NCBI RefSeq assembly: GCF_014522205.1
Contig: NZ_CP046884.1
Span: 806,001-870,000 of the forward strand
DNA: 64,000 nt
Reading direction: 5' to 3'
Origin: Corynebacterium poyangense
Lineage (GTDB): Bacteria > Actinomycetota > Actinomycetes > Mycobacteriales > Mycobacteriaceae
Positions 1,260 through 31,844 of the stretch are shown here, piece by piece. The notes below the pieces were generated by a model. The model was not told where the DNA came from. It did not search any database and saw only the letters and a list, made by a program, of their open reading frames with translations. Each line of letters begins with the position of its first letter. Position 1 is the stretch's first letter. A program made the position numbers and the translations under genes.

Positions 1260-1292
1260 CCTTGCACCTTCTTTCTCGAGCGATCCTCACCT

Positions 1293-1315: not shown

Positions 1316-1356
1316 GAAGTCAATAGGTTGTTCGCGGAGGGAAGGGGCAAGAAAAA

Positions 1357-1377: not shown

Positions 1378-1396
1378 TCTGGTGAGAAATGAGGCT

Positions 1397-3850: not shown

Positions 3851-3860
3851 CATTATCCAG

Positions 3861-4469
3861 GTGTCATCCTCGGAATCGATTAGTGTTGTTGTCCTTGTCT
3901 CAGGTAGCGGAACCTTGCTCCAAGCCATCTTGGATCATCAGGATGAAAGCTATCGGGTCAAGAAAGTCGTGGCAGATACGCCATGTCAAGCCCTAGACCG
4001 AGCATCCCAGGCTGGAATTACTACTGAAGTAGTAGCGTTAGGGAAAGACCGTGCGGAATGGAATATCCGGTTAGCTGAGGCTGTTGCCCAAGCTCAACCG
4101 GATATTGTTGTATCTGCCGGTTTTATGCGGATCCTGGGATCTGAATTTTTGGAACGCTATAGCGGGCGCATTATCAACACTCATCCTGCTTTACTGCCTA
4201 GTTTCCCCGGTGCTCACGGAGTACGTGACGCGTTGGCCTATGGAGTAAAGGTGACCGGTTCCACTGTTCACTTCGTTGATGAAGGGGTGGATACCGGCCC
4301 CATCATCGCCCAAGAGGCGGTCAGCATACAGCCCGATGACACCGAAGATTCGCTTCATGAGCGGATAAAGAAAGTTGAACGCCGACTTATCGTCTCACTA
4401 CTGCGCCGCGCTCAGATTGACGGCCAAACTGGAGAGGTTCACTTCAAGAATGACGAAAAAAGCCATTAA
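3861..4469 (+). CDS. purN: Phosphoribosylglycinamide formyltransferase
   Basis: A 202-aa GAR transformylase that moves a formyl group from 10-formyl-THF to GAR in purine synthesis. The N-terminal phosphate loop reads SGSGTLLQ. The catalytic stretch [16 protein letters not shown] carries the conserved Asn and His, and the catalytic Asp lies in [11 protein letters not shown]. Length is standard. The start is GTG at 3861. Its 3' end overlaps purH by 20 bases, so the two are translationally coupled, as in other corynebacteria. Confidence 0.96.
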
Positions 4470-5997
4470 ACGAGCTCTGATTAGTGTTTATGACAAGACC
4501 GGCCTAGAGGAGCTAGCCTCGGCCTTAGCGGAAGCCGGCGTAGAGATTGTGTCTACCGGATCAACTGCCCAGCGCATTTCCGACGCAGGGGTTGCCGTGA
4601 CACCGGTAGAAAACCTCACGGGATTCCCGGAGTGTCTAGAGGGCCGGGTCAAGACTCTTCATCCGAAGGTTCATGCGGGGATTTTGGCCGATACCAGGAA
4701 AGAAGATCACCTCACCCAGCTATCCGAGCTCGGGGTAGAACCTTTCCAACTCGTTGTTGTTAATCTCTATCCATTTAGTGAAACAGTTGCTTCGGGAGCA
4801 GATCGAGATGCTTGTATTGAGCAGATCGATATCGGAGGCCCCTCAATGGTGCGGGCGGCGGCAAAAAACCACCCCTCTGTGGCGGTGGTGGTGGACCCAG
4901 CTCGATATGGCGAAGTAATCGATGCCGTCAAGACGGGTGGCTTTAGTCTTGAGCAGCGCACCGAATTAGCTGTGGATGCTTTCCGGCACACGGCATCCTA
5001 TGATGTAGCAGTTGCCTCGTGGCTTGGTGCATCACAGGAGGCAGAGTTTCCGGCTTGGATTGGGGCCACCTACCAACGAGCACAGACTTTAAGATATGGG
5101 GAAAACCCGCATCAGCGGGCAGCGTTATATGTCGACGAACACCGTACCGGTGGGGTAGCTCAGGCTCAACAATTCCACGGCAAGGACATGAGCTACAACA
5201 ACTACACCGACACCGATGCCGCATGGCGGGCAGCGTGGGATCACGAACGCCCGTGTGTTGCCATCATTAAGCACGCTAATCCTTGTGGAATTGCCGTATC
5301 TGATGAGTCTATTGCTGCTGCCCACCGCAATGCCCACGCCTGTGACTCCACTTCAGCGTACGGGGGTGTTATTGCTGCGAACCGGGAAGTAAGTGTAGAG
5401 ATGGCGGAGCAGGTTAAAGAAATCTTTACCGAGGTCATCATTGCTCCGGGGTACGAAGACGGCGCTATTGATCTTTTGTCTCAGAAGAAAAATATTCGCA
5501 TCTTGCAGGCTATCCCTCCGCAGAGAGAGGGATGCGAGTATCGCGAAGTATCGGGAGGCATGTTACTTCAAGAAAAAGACACCCTTCATGCCAGCGGAGA
5601 TGATCCGGCGCAGTGGCAGTTGGTGGCTGGCGAAGCTGCGGATGATCGCACCTTGCAGGATTTAGCCTTTGCGTGGACTACTATTCGTGCAGTTAAGTCC
5701 AACGCCATTTTGTTAGCTCGTGATGGCGCTACCGTAGGGGTAGGGATGGGGCAGGTTAATCGGGTAGATTCTGCTCGGCTAGCCGTTCAGCGCGCAGGGG
5801 CTGAGCGGGCGTCGGGTTCAGTTGCCGCTTCGGATGCCTTCTTCCCCTTTGCTGATGGTTTCGAGGTGCTGGCCAAAGCCGGCGTACGGGCGGTGGTCCA
5901 GCCGGGTGGCTCCATCCGAGACAATGAAGTAATTGAAGCCGCTAAAAAAGCAGGTGTCACCATGTATCTCACCGGGGCGCGACATTTTGCTCACTAG
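4450..5997 (+). CDS. purH: Bifunctional AICAR transformylase/IMP cyclohydrolase
   Basis: A 515-aa enzyme for the last two steps of IMP synthesis. Residues 1-140 form the MGS-like IMP cyclohydrolase domain ([40 protein letters not shown]). The rest is the AICAR formyltransferase domain with the motif [10 protein letters not shown] and the C-terminal [11 protein letters not shown]. The start is the ATG at 4450 ([10 protein letters not shown]), inside the purN end; the longer upstream frame is not conserved-looking. It is expected to be expressed as one unit with purN. Confidence 0.96.
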
Positions 5998-6086
5998 CCC
6001 CACTCAGGTGGAGTGCCGTGAATCGCCGATAAGATACTTTCCAAACCAATTTGCTATCTAGCTGTGATTCACGGAGGATCTGCTCA

Positions 6087-6692
6087 ATGAGCAACCAAGA
6101 TTGGGGTTATCAGCCCCAGCACACACAGCAATTTCCTCAAGGTCAATTCCAGGATCAATGGGATAACCAATGGAGTGAAGACGCAGAAGATACATCGTCG
6201 TCATCGAATCGGGGATTAATTATTGGTCTTGGGGTCATTGCTGTCCTGCTCTTTCTTTTTATTCTGGGTTCTGCAGCCTACTTATTTATGGGCACCTTCT
6301 CACAAAGCCAGGACAACGCTTCTTCTGCTAGCTCCAGCAGCACGAGTTCCACCAACAACGCATTGGAAACGGTAACAACCCAGAAGTCCACGGGCCGCCC
6401 CCAGCACCCTTCAATTCCGGCAGGATCCCGAGCAGTAAATGACGCCGCCCGGAATAATGAGCCAGCCGGGAATTTCAATAATGTTTATGCCGGTACTAAT
6501 GTGACATCGGATCCTTTTGCGCTAGCAGTGAGAGATGCCTATGCCCAGAACTTTACTGAGCACCACCAATATGACGCTGTCCTCAACGTCAGGAGTTCAG
6601 TAACTGGAGTAACCTACCGAATGGATTGTCACGATAATGGCCAATACGTCACCTGCACGGGTGGCGACAATGCCGTGGTATATATCTCATGA
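6087..6692 (+). CDS. Single-span membrane protein with low-complexity linker
   Basis: A 201-aa protein starting at the ATG at 6087, preceded by GGAGG. The N-terminal 45 residues are Gln/Trp/Asp-rich and cytoplasmic-looking. One strong membrane helix follows (about residues 47-72), then a Ser/Thr-rich linker, then an extracytoplasmic domain of about 110 residues with two cysteines near the end that could pair. No catalytic motif is recognised. It overlaps the following lipoprotein gene by 4 bases, so the two products probably work together at the cell surface. Confidence 0.75.
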   Translation: MSNQDWGYQPQHTQQFPQGQFQDQWDNQWSEDAEDTSSSSNRGLIIGLGVIAVLLFLFILGSAAYLFMGTFSQSQDNASSASSSSTSSTNNALETVTTQKSTGRPQHPSIPAGSRAVNDAARNNEPAGNFNNVYAGTNVTSDPFALAVRDAYAQNFTEHHQYDAVLNVRSSVTGVTYRMDCHDNGQYVTCTGGDNAVVYIS

Positions 6693-7546
6693 ATGTAAAA
6701 AATACGTTTTTAACTGGAGTTTTCTCCATAGTGGCGTTGACCGCCTGCACGATTCCAGGAACGATGGATAATCACGAAACTGAAAATTCCAACCCGTCCC
6801 CGACAATCAGCACAACAGCTAAAACTGAATCTGAATTTCCTCAACTTGATTTGAGATCCATCATGAGCAAGGTGCACTCTCGATATCCCGGTCAGGTTGG
6901 TATTGCGATATCAGATGGGCGTACCGATCAAGAAGCTGGTGCCACCGATGCTGTTCCTGCCTGGTCTACATCAAAAGTGCCCTTAGCGATAGCAGCACTA
7001 CGGAAAGATCCGTCATTAAAGGACACAGTGACTGCGGCTATTACTCGCTCAGATAATTCTTCAGCAGAAAAACTGTGGAGCGCGCTGGGGACACCGCAGT
7101 CCGCAGCGACGGCTGTCTCCCAGGTATTAAGCGAAGGGGGAGTAACTGCCCTGGTACAAAGCTCGGTGGTTCGGCCAGGTTTTAGCAGCTTTGGCCAAAC
7201 CATGCTCAGCCCAGCTCAGGAGGCACATTTTGCGGCAAATCTGCATTGCATCCAGGGGGCAGAGACGGTTATTGGGTTGATGGGCCAGGTCGAATCGGAT
7301 CAAGCCTACGGGATGGGGACCCTAGCTGGCGCCAAATTCAAAGGGGGTTGGGGGCCTACTCCCGAGGGTGGATATGAAGCTCGGCAATTCGGCACCGTAG
7401 AAGTAGCCGGATCACCGGTTGCCCTAGCGTTATGGGTGCGCCCAGACGCTGGCGATTATGGCACAGCTCAACAAGCCCTGAACTTATTAGCTAAGGAATT
7501 AGAGCCGGTTCTTCAACAAGCACCACGGGTGTCCCAGAAGTGTTAA
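6689..7546 (+). CDS. Lipoprotein with class A beta-lactamase-like fold
   Basis: A 285-aa lipoprotein: signal peptide with lipobox LTAC (Cys20), then a Ser/Thr/Pro-rich linker. The body carries serine-hydrolase motifs of the penicillin-recognising family: SxxK as STSK (93-96), SDN (121-123) and KGG (218-220) in place of KTG. The order and spacing match class A beta-lactamase-like proteins. Whether it hydrolyses beta-lactams, acts on peptidoglycan, or is only structural is open; the omega-loop glutamate is not obvious. It is co-translated with the membrane protein upstream. Confidence 0.8.
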   Translation: MNVKNTFLTGVFSIVALTACTIPGTMDNHETENSNPSPTISTTAKTESEFPQLDLRSIMSKVHSRYPGQVGIAISDGRTDQEAGATDAVPAWSTSKVPLAIAALRKDPSLKDTVTAAITRSDNSSAEKLWSALGTPQSAATAVSQVLSEGGVTALVQSSVVRPGFSSFGQTMLSPAQEAHFAANLHCIQGAETVIGLMGQVESDQAYGMGTLAGAKFKGGWGPTPEGGYEARQFGTVEVAGSPVALALWVRPDAGDYGTAQQALNLLAKELEPVLQQAPRVSQKC

Positions 7547-8211
7547 GACTCAAGCGAGTTCAAAAGCTCCAAGGTACGCTCTTCGCGATTCTCAGGCAGA
7601 GGCGCATGGAGCACCGCTAAGGCTGCATCTGCCAGCATAATAGCGGTCTCAGGAAGCTGTTGACCGAACTCTGGGGCAGGGGCAGTACCGTTGTTATCCC
7701 GCATTTCGATAACAGACATAGCAATGTGGAAAGGCAGTCGCGCCCGGGGATCATTCTCACCAACTATCTTCTCCGCCAAGTCACGGAAAATCGCTTCCAG
7801 ATCACTACGTTGCTGGTGATATTCGGCGAACTCTGAAGAATGCGCTACCGGGAGTTGATAAAGCCGGCCCACATTCCACCGAGAAGCTAAAAGCTGGCTT
7901 GCCTCGGCGGCGACTAAGGACCATAACCGTTGCGCAGCGGATACGTCCGACTCACCCAAGGCTTCAGCAAGTTTCACTGATGGTTCAATAGTGGACTTCA
8001 GGAGGGTTAAGAAGATCTCCGTTTTGGAGGGAAAGTGGTAGTACAAGGAGGCTTGACGAATTCCCACGGCGTCCGCTATCTGGTGGGTAGATGTGGTAGC
8101 AAACCCTTGAGTGGTAAATAACTCTGAGGCTGCATCAAGGATTTCTTCTCGAGCATTGCGCCCGCGGCGGCGCGGACTGTGTTTGCGGGGTCGCCCCACT
8201 GCTCCTGCCAC
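7543..8211 (-). CDS. amtR: AmtR, TetR-family nitrogen regulator
   Basis: A 222-aa TetR-family repressor closely resembling Corynebacterium glutamicum AmtR. Its N-terminus MAGAVGRPRK is followed by the helix-turn-helix ending SLYYHFPSKTEIF. The GTG at 8211 is chosen because it gives the known N-terminus and length; an upstream start at 8232 is also open. In C. glutamicum, AmtR represses amt, glnA, gltBD and urease genes and is released by adenylylated GlnK under nitrogen limitation. The gene overlaps the convergent lipoprotein gene by 4 bases. Confidence 0.95.
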   Translation of the reverse strand: MAGAVGRPRKHSPRRRGRNAREEILDAASELFTTQGFATTSTHQIADAVGIRQASLYYHFPSKTEIFLTLLKSTIEPSVKLAEALGESDVSAAQRLWSLVAAEASQLLASRWNVGRLYQLPVAHSSEFAEYHQQRSDLEAIFRDLAEKIVGENDPRARLPFHIAMSVIEMRDNNGTAPAPEFGQQLPETAIMLADAALAVLHAPLPENREERTLELLNSLES

Positions 8212-8297
8212 GTGTACTCTCCTGTCGATCAACCGAAATTATAAATTATTTTAACCAGGTTTCCTTGTTTAGGCCTGAACCGGGGAGGGTGAGAAAC

Positions 8298-9137
8298 CTA
8301 AGAAAAACGGGAGTGGATAGCCCGAAAAATTTGGCTTAGATCACGTGATGCGGCACCAAATTCGGAACGCTGTAACGCAGGAAGCGTTTCTGCGGTGACT
8401 TCATGATCATAGACTCCGTCAAGCCAGCGCTGTAATTGCAGCCGCACACCGGAGTGGAAGCCTTGGATAAGAAGGGCAGCTTCGGGTTCTCGGAGCACTC
8501 CTGCTTGAGCTGCTGCACTGAGGCGACGTGGAGTTGAGAGTTCAGAAGAACCGGCTTCGGCGGCTGCCCACCTGGCAATCCGGACCACAGGTACGAGTAG
8601 ATTCTTCCGGATGGAAACTACGGTTCCTCGGTCCGGTAAACCATTACTGACTTTGATAGCTGGTGGATGAAGGGCCAATGCCTCAGTCAGTAAATCCTGG
8701 CGCTGGTGCGGGCTCAGCGTCGATATCTGAGAAGGATGAGTAGTTATCGCCGCATCAAGAAGAAACCGCGGGTCTAGGTCGGATTTTTCAATCGGAACGT
8801 GGGTGCCGTGGAAAAGCTGAAAAATAGTTTCTGGGTGTTTAGCGCTGAGAGATCCGTTTTTCTCTAGCAGCCAGGAAATAGGAGAGTCCGGTAAGGCTTC
8901 ACCTCGTCCCACCGCTCCACTAGGAACGATCCGATAGCCAGCAAGGCTCACCGCGGGACAACGAAGTAAGCTGGTGATGATGTCGGAATACCACGACGTT
9001 AGGGCTTCTGGTTTAACGTCGTGAGCTAAAGCATTGCGGAATAACTGGTGCGATTCCACTACGACGCCACGCGCGGTGGCTAGATCCTGACAGCGAGGGG
9101 CTTGCTCTGCCAATTCGATCAGGGAAGGGTGTAGCAC
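8298..9137 (-). CDS. Putative degenerate nucleotidyltransferase (DUF294-like)
   Basis: A 279-aa mainly helical protein encoded just upstream of amtR on the same strand. The central stretch VPSGAVGRGEALPDSP resembles the GlnD/DUF294 nucleotidyltransferase loop (GSxGRxE followed by DxD). However, the metal-binding aspartate pair is not evident, so catalysis is doubtful. The C-terminal half, rich in Leu/Ala helices, fits the substrate-binding-like domain of the same family. Proximity to amtR hints at a nitrogen-signalling link, but this is inference. The family call is tentative. Confidence 0.55.
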   Translation of the reverse strand: MLHPSLIELAEQAPRCQDLATARGVVVESHQLFRNALAHDVKPEALTSWYSDIITSLLRCPAVSLAGYRIVPSGAVGRGEALPDSPISWLLEKNGSLSAKHPETIFQLFHGTHVPIEKSDLDPRFLLDAAITTHPSQISTLSPHQRQDLLTEALALHPPAIKVSNGLPDRGTVVSIRKNLLVPVVRIARWAAAEAGSSELSTPRRLSAAAQAGVLREPEAALLIQGFHSGVRLQLQRWLDGVYDHEVTAETLPALQRSEFGAASRDLSQIFRAIHSRFS

Positions 9138-9210
9138 GCCCGGTTTCCTTTCAGCTTGAGGGTTTACTGAGTGTTAAGCCTACTTCCTCAGGTGTGGTGA
9201 GATACAACAA

Positions 9211-9235
9211 GGCCCATCCCGGAGGGGATGGGCCT
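9211..9235 (-). terminator. Terminator of the rpmB-rpmG-rpsN-rpsR operon
   Basis: Perfect 10-bp stem (GGCCCATCCC/GGGATGGGCC) with a 4-base loop. On the minus strand it is followed by a T-rich run TTGTTGTAT. It lies about 60 bp past the rpsR stop codon. Confidence 0.8.
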
Positions 9236-9293
9236 TAAACTTTTACCGTGTCACGAACTACAGCGGCAAAAGGGCGCTGTTGTGTTACCCGAT

Positions 9294-9542
9294 TTAGCGG
9301 GTAGTGAACGGCAGGAGAGCCATTTCGCGTGCGTTCTTCACAGCGGTAGCAACTTCGCGCTGTTGCTTCGGAGTTAACCCGGTGACGCGACGGGAACGGA
9401 TCTTGTGTCGATCAGAGATGAACAAACGAAGGGTTTTGATGTCCTTGTAGTCTACCTTCTCAATGCCCTCCATTTTGAGGGGGTTCTTCTTCGGGCGGTG
9501 GGATTGTTCCATCCGCGCCTTACGATGATTATTGCGCTTCAT
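9294..9542 (-). CDS. rpsR: 30S ribosomal protein S18, cysteine-free form
   Basis: An 82-aa S18 with the core [20 protein letters not shown] and the C-terminal [13 protein letters not shown]. It has no cysteines, unlike the zinc-binding S18 with a CxxC near the N-terminus; it corresponds to the C-minus paralogue (mycobacterial rpsR2 type). It is the last gene of a four-gene ribosomal operon ending at the terminator near 9211. Confidence 0.96.
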
Positions 9543-9554
9543 GAATTATCTCCC

Positions 9555-9860
9555 TTACCAGCTTGACTTCCGGACACCGGGCAGCTCACCACGGTGTGCC
9601 ATCTCACGCATACGAACACGGGACAGGCCGAACTTACGCAGATAGCCGCGAGGGCGGCCATCGTGAGAGTCGCGGTTGCGCACCCGAATAGGGGAGGCGT
9701 CACGCGGCTGGCGGTTTAGTTCAAACTGTGCATCCAGACGCTCGTCATCGGTGCTGTTCGGGTTCTTGATAATAGCCTTGAGCTCGTTACGGCGCTCCGC
9801 ATAGCGGGCGACGATTTCCTTACGCTGCTCATTCTTGGCGATCTTGGACTTCTTCGCCAT
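9555..9860 (-). CDS. rpsN: 30S ribosomal protein S14, long cysteine-free form
   Basis: A 101-aa S14 starting [17 protein letters not shown] and ending [11 protein letters not shown]. This is the long type that lacks the CxxC-CxxC zinc ribbon of the short S14. The start at 9860 is the conserved one; the frame is open further upstream but overlaps rpmG. It lies 4 bases after the rpmG stop. Confidence 0.97.
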
Positions 9861-9864
9861 ACTT

Positions 9865-10029
9865 CTATCGCTCCTCGCGGAATTCGACGTGCTTGCGGAC
9901 GACCGGATCATATTTCTTGATGGTGATCCGGTCAGGGGTATTGCGCTTGTTCTTGCGGGTGACATAGGTGTACCCAGTACCCGCAGTGGACTTCAGCTTG
10001 ATAATTGGGCGTACGTCATTGCGAGCCAT
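9865..10029 (-). CDS. rpmG: 50S ribosomal protein L33, cysteine-free form
   Basis: A 54-aa L33 ([20 protein letters not shown] at the start, ending HVEFREER). None of the four zinc-binding cysteines of the C-plus form are present. It sits between rpmB (2-bp gap) and rpsN in the operon. Confidence 0.96.
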
Positions 10030-10031
10030 AT

Positions 10032-10268
10032 TTAGATCTTCTCCCCACGTGCCCGGATGCGAGCCACGACAGCTTCAATTCCATCGCGGTCAATTACTTT
10101 CAGGCCCTTCGTCGAAACGTTCAGGGTGATAGTGCGCCCTTCAGAGGGCAGATAGAACCGACGGCGCTGAATGTTGGGATTCCAACGGCGCGACGTACGG
10201 CGGTGCGAGTGCGAGACAGACTTGCCGAAACCCGGCTTGCGTCCCGTTACCTGGCAAATAGCCGACAT
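10032..10268 (-). CDS. rpmB: 50S ribosomal protein L28
   Basis: A 78-aa L28: [20 protein letters not shown] at the start, then the conserved region with [15 protein letters not shown], ending [10 protein letters not shown]. It has a single cysteine (residue 5), so no zinc site. It is the first gene of the leftward ribosomal operon. The start at 10268 is the conserved one. Confidence 0.96.
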
Positions 10269-10719
10269 GGACTTCCTTCTCCTAGCCGCCCACGTACAAC
10301 TTGGGGCGCGCCGCACCGAGCATATATGCAGGTCGGGGCGCAGCCGCTACCAGCTGACGGGGCGAAAACGAATATTTTCGACAACAGCAAGAGGGAATCA
10401 TACTAGAAATATGGCTCAGTGCCTAATTCGCTCCACAGCTGACCGTCAGTAATCGATTCTTTTCCATATATATTAGAGCGTTAACCGTAGAATAAGGCGC
10501 AATTTTCAATTTCTTGGGGGATCGGGTACTGTGGTTCAAGTTGTCATCATTTGGGCAGGTTTAGACCTGCCTTGCTAAGAATGATGCCGCGCATAGTTCA
10601 AGTTTTACGAGCCCAACTCAGGCACGATCTTTAGCGGAACTCTGTCCGGTGAGCTGACATCCGGTGAGTTTCTGCTAAGGAACCGACCTGAAGTTCAACC
10701 CTGAGGGAATCGAGAATAT
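10269..10719. promoter_or_regulatory. Divergent promoter/leader region of two ribosomal operons
   Basis: About 450 bp without a gene, between rpmB (leftward) and rpmE (rightward). Visible elements are: an inverted repeat CGAAAA-6 bp-TTTTCG at 10363-10380 on the rpmB side; a 7-bp perfect hairpin GGCAGGT/ACCTGCC at 10554-10571, enclosed by an outer pairing ATCATT/AATGAT (10546-10551 and 10580-10585) on the rpmE side; and a direct repeat TCCGGTGAG at 10645-10653 and 10660-10668. These may serve regulator binding or autoregulation by a ribosomal protein, but neither is shown. Confidence 0.55.
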
Positions 10720-23331: not shown

Positions 23332-23404
23332 GGGGCTATAGCTCAGTTGGTAGAGCGTCGCGTTCGCAATGCGAAGGTCAGGGGTTCGATTCCCCTTAGC
23401 TCCA
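23332..23404 (+). tRNA. tRNA-Ala (CGC)
   Basis: Cloverleaf built by hand: acceptor GGGGCTA pairs with TAGCTCC (one G-T), the D arm contains AGCTCAGTTGGTAGAGC, the anticodon loop TTCGCAA gives anticodon CGC (Ala), the T arm is built from GGGGTTCGATTCCCC, and the discriminator base is A. CCA is not encoded. An accessory region begins immediately downstream, so this tRNA is a likely insertion hotspot. Confidence 0.95.
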
Positions 23405-23408
23405 CAAA

Positions 23409-23499
23409 GTACCCGCTCATTCTGATAGACAGCCCGGCATGGTTGGGTGGTAGTCAGGATGGGCGTTTTGTTTGTTGGTGCAGGTTTCAGGGGGTTTGC
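23409..23499 (+). repeat. Long direct repeat, copy A
   Basis: Begins five bases after tRNA-Ala. It shares long identical blocks with copy B at 28923-29034, for example TTCTGATAGACAG, CCGGCATGGTTGGGTGG, GATGGGCGTTTTGTTT and GTGCAGGTTTCAGGGGGTT. The two copies differ by scattered substitutions and one insertion. It may be the end of an insertion element or of the integrated unit. Confidence 0.8.
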
Positions 23500-24124
23500 C
23501 TGTGATTATGCCGCATAATCCCGGAGGGAATTGGCCGGCGATTGTGCCCCAACGGCGAGCGTTCAAACACGTCAACCTCACGAGCCTGGGGAGCGTATAT
23601 TTCTTGTAAGGAGAGAAGGTTATGGGTAACCGGATTTCATTGATCAGACCATCTGCCTAAAACACGGGCATCACGATCCTTAGCTCCTGCAGGCCGGTCT
23701 GTGATCCGGCTACCTATCGGGGTGATAGACATACTTCAGTTGCAGGCGGGAGTCGTCGAATAAGGGTTACAGCCGGTGCGTGTTGACCGCAAGGTTGGGA
23801 CAGTTGCTGTTTCGTAGCGAAATATCACACTGGACGTAGCCACCGCATAGCCTGTGCAGTCGCTTCGGTATGAGTTAAATTTGTGGCCTCCCCGAACGCG
23901 TCAGCACGCAAAATCTGGTCTGTCAAGACCCGCTTTTTATGGCCAAGAAGCTTGTCCTAGAGATCTTGGTAGGCAAGCGGTACCAGCGCGGATACGGTCG
24001 CGGCTTTCGACAATCGCATGGTTCCAAAAACGGGTGCACGCCACTCCTAAGCCACGAAGGCAGCTCAACTTGAGTGCATGTGAAACTGTGGTGAACTAGA
24101 AAGAGGACCATTAGCATAGTATTG
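23500..24124. other. Gene-poor stretch with a 17-bp palindrome
   Basis: No convincing coding sequence. Short frames around 23854-24099 show no recognisable family. A perfect palindrome (GATTATGC-C-GCATAATC, 23504-23520) directly follows repeat copy A and may be a recombination or regulatory site. The rest looks like degraded mobile-element DNA. Confidence 0.5.
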
Positions 24125-24253
24125 ATGCTAAAAACCGAAGGTAATATTACGGCCACGCCTAATATTGGCTCTGGCGTAATCTTATCAGTTAGACAAATGC
24201 GTAATTCGTCCAAGGGACTCGATTACTCTCTATTTAATCCTTTTTGGGGGTAG
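24125..24253 (+). CDS. Possible 42-aa precursor peptide
   Basis: A short open frame starting at the ATG at 24125 (MLKTEGNITATPNIGSG at the start) and ending in the aromatic tail DYSLFNPFWG. It sits about 50 bp upstream of a flavin reductase, in front of M16 peptidase and MFS exporter genes. This is where a ribosomal-peptide precursor would lie. It has no cysteine. The ribosome-binding site is weak: AGAGG is about 18 bases upstream. Coding status rests on context and on the distinctive C-terminus, so it is uncertain. Confidence 0.35.
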   Translation: MLKTEGNITATPNIGSGVILSVRQMRNSSKGLDYSLFNPFWG

Positions 24254-24301
24254 CATCTTTTATTTAATTCTGTTGAGAATAGCATGAAAGGCATTTCTCC
24301 G

Positions 24302-24898
24302 ATGAACGAATTCTCCTCCAAAATCGGTGTAGGTGAATGTGGTGAGGCCCGACGGCCAATTATGATCTTGGCGGGAAGCCACCGCATAGGCTGGCACACC
24401 AGCGCGCTGGCTGCGGAAGCGGCAAGACAACTTAGAGAAAAAGGGCATAGTGTTGATTTTGTCGAGGTCAGTGCTTTAGATTTGCCGATGCACAATCCCG
24501 AAGATCACCAGAATCCCCACGCATCAGGCGACTCAAGAGTGCGTGGCTTCGCCGATCGAATTCAGGCTGCAAGCGCTTTCATATTTGTAACTCCGATATA
24601 TCATGGATCCTATTCCTCTTGGCTAAAACGAGTGATCGACCACTTTACTATTTCCCTGGTGCACGATAAACCGATGGCGATCATGGTTCACGGGGGCGGT
24701 CGTTTCAGCGGTTCTGCCATTGAGCATCTTCGCTCTATTTGTGTCAACTTACATGGTCGTTTAATCAATACTGCCGTAGCGACAAACGTCGGAGACTTTT
24801 CTGCTGACAATGGAACTTTGAGGGTTTCAAACGATATTATTGTCGGCAGGGTGGAGCGGGTAGTCGAACAAATAAACGCCGAAAACATTCGATCCTGA
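24302..24898 (+). CDS. NADPH-dependent FMN reductase family protein
   Basis: About 198 aa with the flavodoxin-like fold. The N-terminal FMN loop LAGSHRIGWHTSALA and the motif TPIYHGSYSSWLKRVIDHF are typical of NADPH-dependent FMN reductases and related quinone reductases. Starts at 24284 and 24302 are both open; the second is preceded by AAAGG. This is the only plainly intact enzyme of the island. Its stop overlaps the next start (TGATG), so it was translationally coupled to the broken M16 peptidase. It may supply reduced flavin, or itself oxidise a peptide substrate. Confidence 0.85.
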   Translation: MNEFSSKIGVGECGEARRPIMILAGSHRIGWHTSALAAEAARQLREKGHSVDFVEVSALDLPMHNPEDHQNPHASGDSRVRGFADRIQAASAFIFVTPIYHGSYSSWLKRVIDHFTISLVHDKPMAIMVHGGGRFSGSAIEHLRSICVNLHGRLINTAVATNVGDFSADNGTLRVSNDIIVGRVERVVEQINAENIRS

Positions 24899-25899
24899 TG
24901 TATTCAGCAAGACTTTCTGAATATTCGGTTGCTAAGGAGAGAACGCCCGTTTTGGTCGCGGCGGTTCCAGAAGAACGGAATCAGATACCGTAGGTTTGAT
25001 AGTACATATAGTTGAACATCTGCTTTGGAACCGGCTTGTTAACAGTAATTCTGGTATTAGCTTTAGTGGCCCTACCATCAAAAACCTAACCCTCTATGAG
25101 TGTGTTTGCCCTAGTGAGCAATTTCAGGACGATGAAAGCACCCTGAGGGAAGCTCTGTTAACGCCACTTTATTTCACGCAAAAAGAATTAGACTCGGGGT
25201 TGAGCGTGGTCCAGGTTGAACAGCACAGTCAAATTAGTTGTTCTTCTATTCTTAGAATGGTAGAAGGGAACCGATCTATAACCTCTGATGACATTTTAGT
25301 GTTTCATCAGACTTACTACGCGACTAGTAATATTCGCGTTTAAAGTCCCGGTCGCTACTAGCAGAACAGCTGATGAATGTTGTAATGAAGCAGAAGCGTA
25401 TCGCATTTTTGCGGGGAGGGGGATGTTTTACCAGATTAAAAGGGTAACGAAACTAGTTTAGTTTTTCCAACCGGCAACTTCGGTCGCTGGCGTTGTCTTA
25501 ATTCTTGACCTAGCTCGCCAGGTACATACCGGAATAGGATTAAGGTTTAATGTTCCTGTCAAGCAGCTATCGTATGTCGTTGGGACTGTGCAAGATGTTA
25601 ACTCTAAGGTGCAAGTATTTGTTTATCGCGGTCGATTAGCTTATTTCATCGCTTTTACGCCAGAATCGTCTTGGCCAGTAATCGCCGAATGGCTTCGTTC
25701 ACATCTAAAACACCGGTGTGCGTTCGATTGCTATCGGTTTCTAGATCTTGTTAAAGAGATCTGTTGGCAAGTGTTTTGGGAGGTTCTTATTAATGGAGGC
25801 TATAAGCAGTTGGACCTGGCGTTAAAGTCACGAAAGCTAGGCCGCTGGTGTGAATCAGATTTTCTCGATACCGATGGTTTACGATTATTAGGATACTGA
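24898..25899 (+). pseudogene. M16 (insulinase-like) metallopeptidase, frameshifted
   Basis: Reading begins at the ATG at 24898, moves to a second frame near 24960, and returns to the first near 25335; an in-frame TAG near 25457 also interrupts it. The middle part shows the inverted zinc motif HIVEH (HxxEH) with the downstream zinc-ligand Glu in VVQVE, about 67 residues after the second His. The family pattern SITSDDILVFHQTYYATSN follows, and a C-terminal M16-like half reaches 25899. M16 peptidases clear or mature small peptides, and paired M16B subunits remove leaders in several peptide pathways. As it stands the gene cannot make a full product. Confidence 0.72.
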
Positions 25900-26389
25900 A
25901 GTATTTGAATCGATCGTCATTTTACTTGATACCCTCGCTGGGTCCTTTTATGATATCCCTGCGGAAAACAATGATCCATGCGGAACTCTGGCTCTTGCTA
26001 GTTGATCCTCGATATGGATAATCTCGCACGCGCAACTTTTATACGGTTTTTCATCTGTCAGTGTCGATTCAAGAGTGGCTTTTAAGCGTGGAGTTCTTGG
26101 TGTAATCGCCGTTCCTCTAATAGAAGATGACCCTTGAATCTTTGACCGAGTTTGAAAGGCGTGCGTATTCCCTATCGACACCGATAGCCACATACGCATC
26201 TATGAAGATCGGCTTTTGCACGAGGCGTTGTTTTTGCCTCCGTTTGTTTCTGACGCAAGCGGTTCCGGGACCAGTTATCGCCGTAAGCGATAATTGGTTC
26301 TCTGTCGATTCTCTAACTATGGTGTTTGGTTCGTGGGAGCATCAAACTTCTAAAAGGACTTTCTAGAAAGTACTCTACGGCCGAACGTC
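25900..26389 (+). other. Degraded coding DNA, unassigned
   Basis: About 490 bp with short fragments in all three plus frames and many stops, lying between two M16-like segments. It is probably the decayed N-terminal half of the second M16-like gene, but no zinc motif is visible, so I do not assign it. Confidence 0.35.
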
Positions 26390-26727
26390 CAATCTTTGGG
26401 TCAGCGTGATTGTTTTTGCCTCTCTAGTCAAGTTAGCATTTGGCTGTCCCCGCTCCTGTCAGAGACAATGAGTTTTACAGAAGCGCTTACTTGCATCGTA
26501 TTTCTCTTCCGTTTCGCGTTCCCTCTCTATTTCTGCTTCGCGGGAAATATTCAGCAGTATATGGCGTCTCCTGTGGTTTTAGGTCTAAACTGGGTGCTGG
26601 TTGGCTCCATTGTGAGATAGTCGTTGATGTCGGTGGATGTCCGAGTCCGATTGTTCTTTTCCCAGATGAACTGAGACGTCTACGGAAATTCGAGATACCG
26701 GACAGTGACTTACATCGCTTGGTTTAA
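26390..26727 (+). pseudogene. Remnant of a second M16-like protein (C-terminal domain)
   Basis: The open frame from 26440 to 26727 contains RISLPFRVPSLFLLRGKYSA followed by VYGVSCGFRSKLGAGW and an acidic beta-strand stretch. This resembles the C-terminal M16 pattern in which an LRE..G..Y segment precedes alternating strands. No HxxEH is seen, which would fit the non-catalytic partner of an M16B pair, but upstream decay makes that uncertain. It lies between the first M16 pseudogene and the MFS gene. Confidence 0.45.
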
Positions 26728-26942
26728 TTAACCCTTGTTCGAATTATTTGATCCCTTTCGGATAACAGGGAGAGATGCACCAATGTCGTTTTCAGTGTGT
26801 TGTTTAAATTACCCTTGAATCAACACTTAACCATAGAGGATAGGTTTCGCTCTATCTCTGCTATCGATGTACAACCTGCGGCTAGTTGTTTCGATATCAC
26901 CAGAATTGTTTCTGTTTTCCAGGACGTTGGAGGTGCCTAAAG

Positions 26943-27812
26943 ATGGGAATACAACAGATCAGTGTACTGAAGCATAATGGATTCGGTTTGCTCGCGGGAA
27001 GCGCTCTGCTGTCGCGATTGGGCGATATCGTGGCTGGGCTCGGATTTATCTACCTCGCATATCGGCTCACGCAGTCTCAAACAGCGCCTACAGGGGTTGC
27101 CTTGGCGGAGGTTGTACCGTACCTCCTATTTGGTTTGATTGGTGGAATTATTAGTGATTCTCTTCCCAAACTTCGAGTCATGACCGTGGCCAACTGGTGT
27201 CGTGCTGCAGTAGAGGGAACCGTGGTAATTGCCCTGCTTCTTGACGTGTTTCCTGTGTGGATGTGATTGTAGCTCCATTTCTTTTGCAGCTCGGTGGGGT
27301 TATATATAACCCGTGCAGCCGCGCGACGATAGTGCATATCGTGGAGTCGGATCGCCGTGTAGCAGCCAATTCTGTCATGTCGCTAATTGAAAATGTTACG
27401 TCTATAATTGCACCTTTTCTTGCCAGCGCGATCTTGCTATTTGATGAGTTTCTGTGGATGTTCTTTGCTTTTGACGGGTTGAGTTTCGTTCTGAGCGCCG
27501 TTTTGTTATCCAGGTTGGGCAGTTCAGCGCGGTCGGATGAACTGCTAACTTCGCCCCCGGTAGCCGACGAGTCGTCGAGTGTGATAAGGACTGCGGTATT
27601 TCGAGTTAAGGTATTCTGGAGCGGTGTTGGAACCAGTAATACTCTAATTTTAATCTTCATCTCCACGTTCTTTGCTGTGCTTTGCGGAACGTGGGCCTGG
27701 CGCATGGGTACCCTGTTTATTAGTGTTCCTAATCCTGATAGTCCCACCTGGTTTTATTCTTTGTTGTTGGCTATATATGCAATAGCTGGAATACTCACCG
27801 GTTATTATCGTC
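26943..27812 (+). pseudogene. MFS exporter, frameshifted and 3'-truncated
   Basis: Starts at the ATG at 26943 after a good GGAGG. The first frame codes about 108 residues with the MFS pattern GSALLSRLGDIVAGLGFIYLA and GLIGGIISDSLPKLR. A one-base shift near 27258 moves the reading frame, which continues with ATIVHIVESDRRVAANSVMS and further helices to about 27800. There the sequence switches abruptly to an IS3-family fragment. About 290 of an expected roughly 400 residues remain. The type resembles DHA3 drug or siderophore exporters, which would fit export of a small peptide product. Confidence 0.8.
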
Positions 27813-28085
27813 CACTCCGACCGTGGCGGACAGTTCAAGTCCAATAGATACCTGCGCTTACCAAAAGATCACGGCCTGGTCGGATCCATGGAAAGAGTCG
27901 TGTCTACCGGTGACACCGCTGCGATGGAGTCGTTTTCCCTCCACTGCAACTTGGGTGTGCTCAACACCAAGAGATGGGCGAGTGGTGAGGAATTGGGTAT
28001 TGCGGTCATCACCTGGGTCGAGCGTTGCGACCATCACCGTCGCTGACAAAAACACCTCGGTCAACACACCCCAATCGAATAGGTA
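27801..28085 (+). mobile_element. IS3-family transposase C-terminal remnant
   Basis: A continuous frame from about 27801 reads VHSDRGGQFKSNRYLRL, then STGDTAAMESF, and after a degenerate stretch LGVLNTKRWASGEELGIAV and TPIE. These are hallmarks of the integrase core and C-terminus of IS3 OrfB. The N-terminal two thirds and the left end are missing, so it is not mobile. Its left edge is fused to the truncated MFS gene. Confidence 0.82.
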
Positions 28086-28199
28086 GCAATCAATAAAGAG
28101 CAGCCCTCCATGCTGTATAGAACTGACACCTAGATCTGCAGAAGACTGCCCCAGTAGTGGTTAAGATCCGCGAAAACCACCAGGTACCCCGAGAGCGGT

Positions 28200-28910
28200 G
28201 GTCTGGAGCGCAAACAAAGTCCAGCCTACGCCTGCATCTCAACCGAAGCCGAAGAATAAGCCTCCTCCTACGAAGCGCAGATCAACTACTACACTGCCGA
28301 TATTCACGGACGGGCTGAGTAGAAGTTCGCTGGCAGGTACGCAAATGGAGGCATCACTGGCACCTCCACGAAACACTATGAGGGATTCAAAACCATGATC
28401 GCCGGCGCTTTAGATGGAAAAACCGATCTTATCCTCATCAAAAGTGTCTCCCGTTTCGCTCGAAACACTGTCGACCCGCTCACGTATGTGCGCCAGTCAA
28501 AGATGCAGGCATCGAGGTGTACTTCGAAAAAAAGAAGACATCTGGATCCTGGACTTCAAACGCGAACTGCTCATTACCATCTTGAGCTCTCTGGCCCAAG
28601 AAGAATCGTGCTCTATCAGTGAAAACGTCACCTGAGGGCACCGCAAACGTTTCGCCGCTTGCAAGTTCATGGTGGCCTACACCTCACTGCTTGGATACAG
28701 CAGGGCAGAAGACGGCAATCTCGCTGTTGATCAAGGACAAGTCGTGATCGTGTGGCACGTATACGCTTGATTCTTCACAGACGCCACTCCACACACCATC
28801 GCCAATGAGCTCACCGCAGATGCCATCCCACCCCATGCACCCGCCACAGCTGTCCTGCATCCAAGAAGCGTCCCATGCAACCAAAATCTGCGTTGTATCA
28901 ATATGAGCGT
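28200..28910 (+). pseudogene. Large serine recombinase pseudogene
   Basis: Pieces in three frames together match a large serine recombinase of conjugative or mobilisable elements. The N-terminal part begins YACISTEAEE (first stop near 28257), then SYEAQINYYT and NGGITGTSTKHYEGFKTMIA. The core LILIKSVSRFARNTVD is followed after a shift by GIEVYFEKK, and after another shift by LITILSSLAQEESCSISENV. A further part includes TPHTIANELTADAIP. At least two frameshifts and three stops are present, and the C-terminus is lost. It is a relic of the element that once integrated here. Confidence 0.82.
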
Positions 28911-28922
28911 TTAAAAAACAAT

Positions 28923-29034
28923 GTACCGACCAATTCTGATAGACAGACCGGCATGGTTGGGTGGCTGTCATGATGGGCGTTTTGTTTCTCAGGATGGGCG
29001 GTTTGCTTGTCAGTGCAGGTTTCAGGGGGTTCGC
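28923..29034 (+). repeat. Long direct repeat, copy B
   Basis: Second copy of the repeat at 23409-23499, following the recombinase relic. It carries an extra segment of about 20 bp that is a tandem, slightly diverged duplication of GATGGGCGTTTTGTTT. The pair brackets about 5.4 kb of the island. Confidence 0.8.
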
Positions 29035-29658
29035 AGTTTTTGAACTCGCAGTTTGACGGGGGGCGAGCGAGGCAGCTCTGGGTGCTGCTATGAAGAGCCC
29101 ACTAGCTGCCGAGGTGACCACTGGGGCGGTATCCGCTAAAAAATTCGGCAATCACATTAAAGATAAGAGGTTCATATCCAGTATCCGATTGGATACAAGT
29201 CTGTACGGGGTACTGCAATGACGACCGTGACGGGCATACCTAGCGCGAGAGAAACAGCCCCTTCAGAGTGCTTCGGAAGATAGTGTTTGCGGTCTGCAAG
29301 TGTTCCTATATTTGCGAGATTGTTAGCCGACTGTTGTGCCGCGGTGTGAGAATGGAGTGTGCTACCAGCACAATGTACACCCGCGATGTATCGCAAAATC
29401 CATTACGTAAATACCAAAGGATTGGTAGTGCATGGTCAGTGTAGCAGCTATTTTTCGTGTTATGACCCATAGCTAGGGGTCGTAACACATCAGTACGCCG
29501 GCACGAGGACAACGGCAGAAGATGTGGGAGCGAGCGCCGTCAGGCACCAGTGTCGCGTGCGACGAACGTTTATGAAAATGCACTGCAATAAATTTAAGTC
29601 TTGCGAGCCTGAAAGTCCTCGGATTACTATGTGACGTGAGACTAGTGAGGAGGGGAGA
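29035..29658. other. Gene-poor stretch after repeat copy B
   Basis: No gene could be supported. A 74-codon minus-strand frame (29172-29396) includes LALGMPVTVVIAVPRT but has no clear family or ribosome-binding site. The DNA looks like old element debris. Confidence 0.4.
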
Positions 29659-29868
29659 ATGCAATTAGAGAACAATCTCAGTAAACATACCAACGCTTCG
29701 GTCAAGGGACAGTCGACAACTTCTGCCGTCATGGTCGTCGCAATAGTGCTTGGTCTGATCTTTATGGCTGTTGGCCTGCCACCCGTGGGGGGTGTGTGCT
29801 TTATAGTTGCGCTAATCTGCGCACTCACTATCGTGGTCAAAGCGTTAGATCAAAAGCTTCATAAATGA
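29659..29868 (+). CDS. Small two-helix membrane protein
   Basis: A 69-aa frame with a strong ribosome-binding site (GAGGAGGGGAG just before the ATG). A polar N-terminus (about 20 residues) is followed by two hydrophobic segments (about 22-40 and 43-60, with PPVGG between) and a basic end KALDQKLHK. No family is recognised. It lies between island debris and an ABC ATPase remnant, so it may have belonged to a transporter or immunity unit. Confidence 0.55.
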   Translation: MQLENNLSKHTNASVKGQSTTSAVMVVAIVLGLIFMAVGLPPVGGVCFIVALICALTIVVKALDQKLHK

Positions 29869-29887
29869 ACCATCGCTGGAGCCTCAG

Positions 29888-30257
29888 AACCTGACTAAAG
29901 CCTTTGGCGGTTTTATTGCTAGGACCAGTTAATGTTGAATAACCTAAAGACAAAGCAACTGTTATTTTTGTTCTAAAAGGTGCAGGAAAAGGTACGCTAA
30001 TCGCTCTTTTAATGGGGATAGCGGAAAAGATGAGGGTGAGGTGTTTAATAACCGCCTATTCACATGGGGTGGAGTATTCGAATAACCACTTTATCCTCCT
30101 CGCACTGGGGTTAAAGGTCAAAGTCGAGGCACTCCGTATTGTATCTAGCATAGCCCGTAATTCTGTGACTGAATTATTGATGAATACATTTTACATCAAT
30201 GCTGCACTCATACATTTGCGAAGTTGTCAACCGGAAATAAACAGTACCTTTCGCTAG
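29888..30257 (+). pseudogene. ABC transporter ATPase remnant
   Basis: Degenerate but recognisable: NLTKAFGGFIA, then after a stop a Walker A-like LKGAGKGTLIALLMGIAEK, a one-base shift to DEGEVFNN, and a further frame containing LLALGLKVKVEALRIV. The order corresponds to the first half of a single-subunit ABC-2 type ATPase. Signature and Walker B regions are missing. Together with the small membrane protein upstream it suggests a lost exporter or resistance transporter. Confidence 0.6.
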
Positions 30258-30400
30258 GTGAAGGTCAAAAGGGGTAAAACTCCGGAGTGAACCCATTGGG
30301 TATAAATGTGCTTTCCTGGATTTTGTGTGAGCATTTGAAGTATGGCGATTTACAAAATAGTCGGTTATCTATTGGATATCTCGCCTAGTATGTGAAACTC

Positions 30401-30423
30401 TAGTGATTATTTACGGATCACTA
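30401..30423. terminator. Weak hairpin terminator at the island's right edge
   Basis: Stem TAGTGAT/ATCACTA with a 9-base loop, followed by TTTCTTATC on the plus strand. It lies just past the stop of the minus-strand kinase gene. Confidence 0.45.
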
Positions 30424-30442
30424 TTTCTTATCTAAAGAGAAT

Positions 30443-31017
30443 TTAGAGCGGATGACTTCTTAGTTCTTTGATGAGAGCCGTAAAATCACCTGGCTTGTTG
30501 ATAATAATAGTTGGTGGGGAGTCGGGGTCTTTTGCCCATGATCTCATAGTTTTCCGGCGTCGGGAGAAAGTTGTGGCATGCCATAGCAAAATGGAATCGG
30601 GGGAGAAAAAGGTGCCATGAACGGTCTCGATATTTCCATTACAACATGGGGTGCGGTAAATAATCCTGCGCGTAGTTCTTGTGAGTAGTCGATAAAAAGA
30701 TAATGCGCGGTGATAGTCCAACCCCACTATGACGTCGCACCTTTTGAGGACGTACGGTCTCCAACTGCTGTAGGCGCCGTCGATAATCCATCGAGGAGAT
30801 TGGCAAATTTCTTGAGCAATAACTTGTTGCTCAGCTGGGGTGCGATTTCTCCAAGGGGCTTGATGGCGGGAACAAACCCGATTTCCTCATCCACATTGTG
30901 GACCGGAATCTTAAGAATTACTCCTAGCTGCTGGGCGGCGCTGGTTTTTCCGCACCCAGAAACCCCAAAAACCAGGATTCGATGGGCATCGCGAAGATGA
31001 GATATGTGTGCTTCCAT
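30443..31017 (-). pseudogene. P-loop kinase of the adenylate-kinase/FlaR type, frameshifted
   Basis: The N-terminal part (ATG at 31017; an ATG at 31071 is also open) has Walker A VFGVSGCGKTSAA. Near 30797 one base appears to be missing: after KKFANLL the family motif WIIDGAYSSWRP continues in another frame, followed by CDVIVGLDYHRALSFYRLL and TRTPC-like sequence, to 30443. The combined length (about 190 residues) is right for topology-modulation-like kinases. One clean lesion suggests recent inactivation or a sequencing error. Confidence 0.72.
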
Positions 31018-31046
31018 GGTGCTGGTGTGCTCAGCCTGAGGTGGAG

Positions 31047-31844
31047 CTAGGGGATGCGCACCGTCAAACACTGAGCCATTACCCCAAAGGGCCCGTGTTT
31101 GTCGTGGAGGAAATTATGGGTTAGCCCTAAACCGGTGGGGCCGAAGTTAGCTCTAATATCGTGACCTAGCCAATCAGAGAATCCGTTTTCAACTTCATGA
31201 AAGTCAGGAACCCGAAAGAAGTGCGCGCTAAGGTCTACGTTGGGGAACATAACTTCTTTAGGGTTGGCTCTCAATGCCATGCCGTTGGCAATATCAAACA
31301 TGCTGGCGGCGAGGGAAAAAGGGCTAGCTGGCTGGTCATCAACTAAAAGTGTGTTGGTGCGTACCCACATGTGGGCGCGGCCGGTGTCAAGTTCGGTGCG
31401 GAAACCTTCAAGAGTTTCTAAAAAGTCTCCTTGCCAATCTTGGACGGGGGCGAACGGTTGCATCTGGGAACGAGGGGTAATGGATTCTATAGCCGTCCCG
31501 GCAACTGCTTGGGTATCGCTGGACACCATAAACCAAATGTGAGCCTGAACAATTGTTCTTCCTTCGTGGAGTAACCGAACTTCCACGAGCTCAATGGTTT
31601 TACCTTTCCGAATGACCTCAACTTGGTAGTCATAAACATCAATAGGAACGACACCGTAGATTTCGTAAGTTACTCGGCCGATGCTGAGATGATCCGTCCG
31701 GCGGACCGCAAAATCTGTTTCGGCAATGTGGAGAATTAATCCTAAAGAAGGAGCTATATGCTGTTCTGACGTATTCCACGCCCCGGTTGTAGCCGAGGTA
31801 GCAGTGTATTGTTGAGCTCCTGTCCGGATGAAATAAGAATCCAT
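31047..31844 (-). CDS. Acyl-CoA thioesterase-family protein
   Basis: A 265-aa protein resembling double-hotdog thioesterases (TesB-like/4HBT_3). The N-terminal half includes SIGRVTYEIYGVVPIDVYDY and QAHIWFMVS, and the second hotdog includes GRAHMWVRTNTLLVDDQPAS and ASMFDIANGM. These enzymes hydrolyse acyl-CoA thioesters; the acyl chain cannot be inferred. Its 3' end meets the P-loop kinase gene, possibly in one operon. Confidence 0.8.
   Translation of the reverse strand: MDSYFIRTGAQQYTATSATTGAWNTSEQHIAPSLGLILHIAETDFAVRRTDHLSIGRVTYEIYGVVPIDVYDYQVEVIRKGKTIELVEVRLLHEGRTIVQAHIWFMVSSDTQAVAGTAIESITPRSQMQPFAPVQDWQGDFLETLEGFRTELDTGRAHMWVRTNTLLVDDQPASPFSLAASMFDIANGMALRANPKEVMFPNVDLSAHFFRVPDFHEVENGFSDWLGHDIRANFGPTGLGLTHNFLHDKHGPFGVMAQCLTVRIP

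What the first reader, a model, noticed from the sequence alone, without database searches (positions are those of the whole stretch)
24125..27812. Decayed, apparently undescribed peptide-maturation cassette: short peptide, flavin reductase, two M16-like proteins, MFS exporter
Seen: an operon-like run of a 42-codon frame, an intact NADPH-FMN reductase whose stop overlaps the next start, an M16 peptidase with HxxEH in pieces, a second M16-like C-terminus and an MFS exporter. Known: M16B pairs remove leaders from some lanthipeptides and act in subtilosin maturation (AlbE/AlbF). Inferred: the locus was a ribosomal-peptide (RiPP-like) pathway with a flavoenzyme as the only tailoring candidate. I know of no such pathway with this set and without a radical SAM or cyclodehydratase gene.
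Basis: partly seen in the sequence, partly recalled or inferred. Interest (0 to 1): 0.78.

Follow-up and report, generated by a model that had tools for sequence, protein, structure and literature searches.

The report
Decayed reductase-peptidase-exporter gene cassette
A small island next to a tRNA gene carries an intact flavin reductase followed by broken genes for a peptide-cutting enzyme and a drug-pump-like exporter, probably the leftovers of a peptide-making pathway, but a relative keeps the reductase and pump without the peptidases, so the idea is only partly supported.

Summary
The observation largely holds. Window 24284-24898 is an intact NADPH-FMN reductase. Behind it, 2 kb of frame-broken sequence holds an M16 catalytic piece (HIVEH), supported by profile alignment though not by Pfam. 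A weaker, probable second M16 C-terminus and a frame-broken, truncated MFS exporter follow. The 42-codon frame is no better than chance. The cassette lies between two 70-nt direct repeats found at no third place in the genome, beside tRNA-Ala and a decayed serine recombinase, so it is probably cargo of a dead integrated element.

Close reductase relatives occur in 2 of 241 other genomes of the genus. In G229 an intact homologous MFS follows directly, without M16. In G106 an MFS-like remnant follows. Neither shows a matching small frame (by eye). Yet M16 matches elsewhere in the genus (3 of 242) are M16B pairs near RiPP-type genes in two genomes and a remnant in the third, like LxmP1/LxmP2 of class V lanthipeptides. 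FMN-reductase-family enzymes (LanJB) are known lanthipeptide tailoring enzymes.

My reading: remnant of a RiPP-like maturation/export cassette (about 0.45). Main rival: a reductase-MFS detoxification pair with M16 genes added (about 0.35).

The parts
23332..23405 (+). tRNA-Ala (CGC); the island starts just behind it
   Evidence: ARAGORN; Rfam RF00005
23404..23473 (.). left 70-nt direct repeat, att-like flank of the island
   Evidence: a search of the own genome finds it at two places only, both here
24125..24253 (+). 42-codon frame upstream of the reductase (also readable from TTG 24122); no evidence that it is a gene
   Evidence: chance-compatible; no Pfam/NCBIfam match
24284..24898 (+). intact NADPH-dependent FMN reductase, 204 aa
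   Evidence: PF03358 E 1.2e-28; relatives at 55% (G106) and 51% (G229)
24898..25899 (+). first M16 gene (M16a), frame-broken; limits approximate and inferred; piece 24996-25343 holds HIVEH (25005-25019) and the candidate distal zinc-ligand Glu (25218-25220)
   Evidence: hhalign E 1.6e-4, probability 50%, 107 columns, 0 of 40 shuffles; repeated; residue coordinates counted by hand
25900..26940 (+). probable second M16 gene (M16b), frame-broken; limits approximate and inferred; piece 26440-26727 holds an R/Y-like pair (LRGKYSAVYG, R at 26539, Y at 26560)
   Evidence: PF05193 positions 116-177 of 181, E 0.061; only PF05193 match at E<=1 in the own genome; R/Y reading by eye; not significant
26943..27847 (+). 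MFS exporter, broken into two frames and lacking its last third
   Evidence: G229 homologue intact, 416 aa
27870..28042 (+). remnant of an IS3-family transposase right behind the point where the MFS homology ends; a possible cause of the truncation (strand of the element not worked out)
   Evidence: 68% DNA identity, E 2e-6, to a Rhodococcus pyridinivorans plasmid IS3 transposase (second hit)
28224..28723 (+). decayed large serine recombinase fragment
   Evidence: 73% DNA identity to a recombinase of Corynebacterium atypicum phiCATYP2070I; Resolvase E 0.033, below cut-off
28918..28987 (.). right copy of the 70-nt direct repeat (87%)

Best explanation
The locus is the decayed cargo of an element that integrated beside tRNA-Ala. 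The cargo was an operon: FMN reductase, M16B catalytic subunit, M16B partner subunit, MFS exporter. Most likely it served the last steps of a ribosomal-peptide (lanthipeptide-like) pathway. The reductase would hydrogenate dehydro residues or otherwise tailor the peptide, the M16B heterodimer would cut off the leader, and the MFS protein would export the product. The precursor and the core modifying enzyme are gone, were never in this element, or were encoded elsewhere. Shown: the gene order, the intact reductase, the MFS homology, the decay and the flanking repeats. Well supported: the M16 catalytic piece. Probable: the second M16 subunit. Inferred: one operon, a peptide substrate, the role of the reductase, and the pathway type.
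For: M16 catalytic piece. Tight spacing: the reductase stop overlaps the ATG at 24898; a frame ending at 26940 is followed by the MFS ATG at 26943. M16 is rare in the genus: PF00675 in 3 of 242 genomes. G067 has an M16 pair, and 5.7-6.5 kb upstream a methyltransferase and a HopA1-domain protein (PF17914 E 1.5e-33). G207 has an M16 pair (first gene frame-broken) with a flavoprotein whose best NCBIfam hit is the CypD RiPP peptide-cysteine decarboxylase (E 4.6e-32, below cut-off), a zinc dehydrogenase and an ABC exporter; G241 keeps dehydrogenase, ABC and M16 pieces (ABC named by eye). Published: LxmP1/LxmP2, inactive and active M16 proteins suggested to form a heterodimer, and Cao15 (PMC8068269, passages); M16B pairs as lanthipeptide proteases (PMC8960859, passages); [quoted passage not shown] FMN reductase genes in lantibiotic clusters (PMC3951391, passages). 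Flanking repeats and recombinase.
Against: In the one relative with an intact MFS (G229) no M16 gene or remnant is seen between reductase and MFS, and the MFS has its own ribosome-binding-like site (by eye). The second M16 is statistically weak, and PF05193 matches of its strength occur by chance in G229. The hhalign probability of the first M16 piece is only 50% or 38%. The small upstream frame is chance-compatible. The reductase belongs to a large family; its NCBIfam scores are far below every cut-off. The two plasmid relatives whose surroundings I opened, of 35 records, are not RiPP loci as annotated. The window piece does not match the G067/G207 first M16 proteins beyond a 13-column HxxEH segment.
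Confidence: 0.45

Rival explanations
1. The functional unit is a two-gene reductase-MFS detoxification and efflux pair (quinone, azo or nitro compound reduction plus export). In the window an M16 pair was inserted between or recruited secondarily, so the locus was never a peptide pathway.
For: G229 has reductase then intact MFS with a 65-bp gap, a ribosome-binding-like site and no visible M16 trace. G106 has reductase then a remnant that NCBIfam matches to MFS C-termini, TIGR00900 among them. The solved relatives of the reductase are mostly azoreductases, quinone or FMN reductases (17 distinct sequences at E<=0.001). The G229 MFS is nearest to TIGR00900, H+ antiporter, below its cut-off.
Against: In the window the reductase stop overlaps the M16 start and the MFS ATG follows a putative M16 end by 2 nt, which looks like an old operon and not an insertion. 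The only relative with an intact MFS has a frame-broken reductase, so a working reductase-MFS pair alone has not been seen. The G106 fragment has no Pfam MFS match and no BLAST likeness to the G229 MFS.
Confidence: 0.35
2. The cassette is part of a pathway that makes a small molecule on or from a peptide scaffold (PQQ-like or pearlin-like), in which M16 peptidases release the product from the scaffold.
For: PqqF is an M16 peptidase that accommodates PqqA (PMC12731061, passages); flavoenzymes and MFS exporters fit small-molecule products. The pearlin comparison is recalled only.
Against: No scaffold peptide, radical SAM or peptide aminoacyl-tRNA ligase was noticed among the frames of the island, though none was searched for by profile; two full-text searches, one with pearlin terms and one with M16/flavin reductase/RiPP/MFS terms, returned no paper.
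Confidence: 0.08
3. A housekeeping-type M16 pair plus reductase, such as the EF-P 5-aminopentanol-associated YfmF type, unconnected with peptide natural products.
For: An NCBIfam family of this name exists and the G067 second M16 touches it weakly (E 0.024).
Against: None of the window pieces given hits it; no PF00675 match in 239 of 242 genomes of the genus at E<=0.001 (the window's own broken copy is among the unseen), so it is not housekeeping here; the locus is on an island.
Confidence: 0.04

Closest known systems
Class V lanthipeptide (lanthidin) clusters: lexapeptide lxm, cacaoidin cao, pristinin spr
   Same: M16 peptidase(s) for leader removal; in lxm an inactive plus an active M16 protein (PMC8068269, passages); sprP an M16 protein (PMC7794033, passage); reductive tailoring of dehydro residues
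   Different: No HopA1 or decarboxylase match in the island and no precursor shown; the reductase is PF03358, not F420/LLM type; exporter MFS, while cao has ABC transporters
Lantibiotic clusters with an FMN reductase gene (Bacillus cereus SJ1 and VD045, C. bescii, Clostridium perfringens ATCC 3626); LanJB
   Same: An NADPH-dependent FMN reductase family gene inside a peptide cluster (PMC3951391, passages; PMC7794033, section 9)
   Different: VD045 and ATCC 3626 have LanM and LanT; the term M16 does not occur in PMC3951391; homology of the window reductase to LanJB was not tested
Heteromeric M16B lanthipeptide proteases PttP1/PttP2 and Bcn-gP1/gP2; AlbE/AlbF
   Same: HXXEH subunit plus R/Y-pair subunit (PMC8960859, passages); AlbF/AlbE (PMC12731061, passages)
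   Different: PttP/Bcn proteases are encoded outside their clusters; the window genes are divergent and broken, the second only probable
Reductase-MFS pair of G229 (same genus, unnamed)
   Same: 51% reductase, 57-64% MFS identity, same order
   Different: No M16 genes; MFS intact, reductase frame-broken

Membership tests
NADPH-dependent FMN reductase (PF03358) | flavodoxin-like domain over the Pfam cut-off | tested here: met
   100.1 bits against 24, E 1.2e-28
M16B heteromeric metallopeptidase | HXXEH motif in an M16 N-terminal domain with distal Glu | tested here: met
   hhalign E 1.6e-4, 107 columns, 0 of 40 shuffles, but probability 50% and no Pfam match; candidate Glu 25218-25220 lies in the aligned stretch; the gene is broken and an 11-residue gap follows the motif
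M16B heteromeric metallopeptidase | second subunit with M16_C domain and R/Y pair | tested here: inconclusive
   PF05193 E 0.061, below cut-off; only match at E<=1 in the own genome; hhalign 3 of 40 shuffles or worse, Smith-Waterman 21 of 500 at best
MFS exporter (TIGR00900-like) | full-length transporter | tested here: not met
   frame-broken; homology ends at residue 287 of 416 relative to G229
Class V lanthipeptide locus | HopA1-domain protein and phosphotransferase beside a precursor | tested here: inconclusive
   No match of the G067 HopA1 protein in window 23400-31100 (best E 0.85); the phosphotransferase was not searched; remnants too decayed to be found cannot be excluded
LanJB lanthipeptide hydrogenase | orthology to CrnJ/BsjJB | not tested
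   No LanJB sequence was fetched; NCBIfam listed no model of that name for the reductase
RiPP pathway in general | precursor peptide gene conserved upstream of the maturation genes | tested here: not met
   Small frames upstream of the reductases in the window, G229 and G106 share no likeness by eye; the window frame is chance-compatible; only two relatives were available

The most novel reading that the evidence does not exclude
A self-contained, mobile RiPP pathway without radical SAM, cyclodehydratase or lanthionine synthetase, in which an FMN reductase is the only tailoring enzyme on a short precursor, followed by M16B leader removal and MFS export.
Probability: 0.07. Interest if true: 0.7.

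Novelty: new variant of a known kind. Interest (0 to 1): 0.3.

Why it matters
If an intact version exists, it would join three parts known separately (FMN reductase tailoring, M16B leader peptidase pair, MFS export) in one small mobile operon. It would also add to the sign seen here that peptide-maturation loci with M16B pairs occur sporadically in this genus and decay there. As it stands, the genes behind the reductase are dead, so the locus is mainly a pointer to intact relatives.

Tried and rejected
Close reductase relatives outside the genus: in 396 genomes of the phylum own is the only hit at E<=1e-30. On plasmids 35 of 72,556 records match, at most 35% identity among the 30 listed. None in viral contigs, one distant record in phages (29.7%), one distant match in genome contigs (26%). 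MFS relatives: 2 of 242 in the genus at E<=1e-40 (own and G229), 1 of 394 in the class at E<=1e-30 (own), none on plasmids at 1e-10 or in viral contigs. M16 pieces against plasmids: none, and one at E 0.4. The HIVEH piece against 242 genus genomes: own only. The genome sets hold one genome per species, class and phylum were sampled in part, and searches scored only the best few candidates of each genome, so an intact donor may be missed.

Pfam on the three raw frames of the M16 region found nothing. The two M16 pieces have no related solved structure by sequence (best E 0.57 and 1.1, unrelated). A first hhalign test was invalid because I took the wrong strand of most M16 loci; it is replaced. 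The G106 fragment behind the reductase is not detectably similar to the G229 MFS by BLAST and has no Pfam MFS match; only NCBIfam profiles of MFS C-termini match it, so calling it an orthologous remnant is an inference. Promoter-like sites upstream: 0 found, 1.6 expected by chance. Literature: eight searches of an open-licence library; only PMC7794033 held all of 'M16', 'leader peptide', 'RiPP' and 'FMN reductase'. I saw no report of this gene set in those listings, which says little beyond them. AlphaFold and fold search were not used: the M16 and MFS pieces are short and without a usable alignment.
Full report
WHAT IS THERE. The window lies in a 2.62-Mb genome (G000) that I take as Corynebacterium; the label rests on the finding and on the C. 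atypicum match, not on a taxonomy call. Behind tRNA-Ala (23332-23405) two 70-nt direct repeats, 23404-23473 and 28918-28987 (87% alike), bracket 5.5 kb. A search of the own genome finds this repeat at these two places only. The right part holds a remnant of an IS3-family transposase (27870-28042, 68%), just where the MFS homology ends, and a decayed serine recombinase, 73% identical in DNA to one of C. atypicum phiCATYP2070I. This is the anatomy of a dead integrated element. The repeat takes in only the last two bases of the tRNA gene, so a classical tRNA attachment site is not shown.

The reductase at 24284-24898 is intact (PF03358 E 1.2e-28). Its stop overlaps an ATG at 24898. The next 2.04 kb have 33, 33 and 40 stops in the three forward frames.

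THE M16 PIECES. Pfam does not see M16 in the first piece. PF00675 gave 24 M16 matches in eight genomes of the same order. I aligned their proteins in three sets of eight and compared window pieces by hhalign with 40 shuffles each. The piece 24996-25340 aligns over 107 columns with one HxxEH-bearing set: E 1.6e-4, probability 50%, score 34.3, shuffle maximum 20.7, 0 of 40. With the other HxxEH-bearing set it aligns over 11 columns only (1 of 40), and with the set lacking the motif over 16 (2 of 40). With two Corynebacterium M16 proteins added to the first set: 0 of 40, probability 38%. Plain Smith-Waterman agrees for one protein, L023 (2 of 500 shuffles), less for L027 (14 of 500), and not for the other six tested (36 of 500 at best). 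The long alignment covers HIVEH, the SFSGPT stretch, the VVQVEQ stretch with a candidate distal Glu, and the YYATSN stretch. The other pieces are not significant. The nearest are 25588-25896 with 1 of 40 for one set, not repeated, and 26797-26937 with 2 of 40.

For 26440-26724 there is a Pfam M16_C match at E 0.061, and it is the only PF05193 match at E<=1 in the own genome (E 0.35). A single best genome-wide match within 2 kb of the catalytic piece is unlikely by accident. But G229 has two PF05193 matches of like strength far from its reductase, so the domain is not proven. By eye it reads LRGKYSAVYG, with the same R-to-Y spacing as LRDVLGVVYQ in the second M16 of G067 (sequence).

THE EXPORTER. 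Two frames, 26943-27266 and 27257-27847, match the intact 416-aa MFS of G229 at 64% (a stretch with two stops) and 57%, ending at its residue 287.

THE SMALL FRAME. 24125-24253 has no family match. A frame at least that long starting with ATG occurs in 15.8% of 2000 shuffles of the 300 nt upstream, and in 33% when GTG and TTG count (mono-nucleotide shuffles). Small frames upstream of the G229 and G106 reductases show no likeness to it by eye.

RELATIVES OF THE REDUCTASE. Of 242 genus genomes three match at E<=1e-12: own, G106 (55%) and G229 (51%). An earlier call on 151 genomes at E<=1e-10 also listed two distant ones, G003 (35%) and G150 (28%). In 396 genomes of the phylum only own matched at E<=1e-30. 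In G229 the reductase (frame-broken near its N-terminus) is followed after 65 bp by the intact MFS, behind a tmRNA gene and smpB (named by eye). In G106 the reductase is intact and a 102-aa frame follows, whose only notable matches are NCBIfam profiles of MFS C-termini. So each of the three copies is damaged, each in another way, and M16 is found in one of three.

M16 IN THE GENUS. PF00675 matches 3 of 242 genomes at E<=0.001: G067, G207 and G241. This search does not see the window piece itself, so it is not sensitive to divergent or broken copies. G067 has an intact pair, PF00675 and PF05193, overlapping by 4 nt, and about 6 kb upstream, beyond transposase-like genes (by eye), a HopA1-domain gene (E 1.5e-33) and a methyltransferase. 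G207 has a pair 65-78% identical to it, the first gene frame-broken, near a flavoprotein whose best NCBIfam model is the CypD RiPP cysteine decarboxylase (E 4.6e-32, below its cut-off), a zinc dehydrogenase and ABC exporter genes (by eye). G241 keeps pieces of dehydrogenase and M16 and the ABC genes. HopA1 protein, CypD-related protein and a zinc or S9 peptidase are shared by the class V (lanthidin) clusters of PMC8068269 (passages; see also PMC7794033 section 9); the phosphotransferase of those clusters was not looked for here. None of the three genomes shows the window's reductase at the threshold or its MFS at that. The island shows no match to 13 proteins of the G067 and G207 loci better than E 0.057.

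HOW IT MOST LIKELY WORKED. Reductase, M16 pair and exporter in tight order fit a maturation and export module: reduce the modified peptide, cut the leader, export. The published parallels are LanJB, an FMN-reductase-family enzyme that reduces dehydro residues, the LxmP1/LxmP2 and PttP1/PttP2 M16 pairs, and FMN reductase genes in lantibiotic clusters. What is shown is homology and order. That the substrate is a peptide rests on the M16 genes and on their RiPP company elsewhere in the genus. The rival, a reductase-efflux pair with M16 genes added, rests on G229 and is nearly as good.

VERDICT.

Noticed in passing
L048 (G067) 446-10519; L049 (G207) 997-9619; L050 (G241) about 3900-7900: Class V lanthipeptide-like loci with M16B pairs or remnants in three genomes of the genus: HopA1 protein and methyltransferase (G067), CypD-like decarboxylase, zinc dehydrogenase and ABC exporter (G207), decayed remnants (G241). 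Transposase-like genes (by eye) interrupt G067.
   Followed up: partly
23404-23473 and 28918-28987: 70-nt direct repeats, found at these two places only in the own genome, bracket the 5.5-kb island beside tRNA-Ala.
   Followed up: yes
27870-28042: IS3-family transposase remnant (68% DNA identity to a Rhodococcus plasmid copy) right behind the truncated MFS.
   Followed up: no
L009 (G229) 6637-10240: The reductase-MFS pair lies behind smpB (by eye) and tmRNA, another usual integration site; its G+C equals that of its surroundings (0.572).
   Followed up: partly
29659-29868: Small intact frame of 69 aa with membrane-like stretches and a purine-rich GAGGAGGGGAGA before its ATG, among decayed DNA; only weak family matches.
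   Followed up: partly
30440-31046: By eye, minus-strand remnants of a P-loop (GxSGCGKT-like) protein in several frames; not tested.
   Followed up: no
L003/L007 (G106), reductase at L007 8949-9518: The G106 reductase is divergent from a siderophore-binding-type ABC lipoprotein gene (by eye); G229 has a similar gene some 5 kb beyond its MFS. May be coincidence.
   Followed up: no
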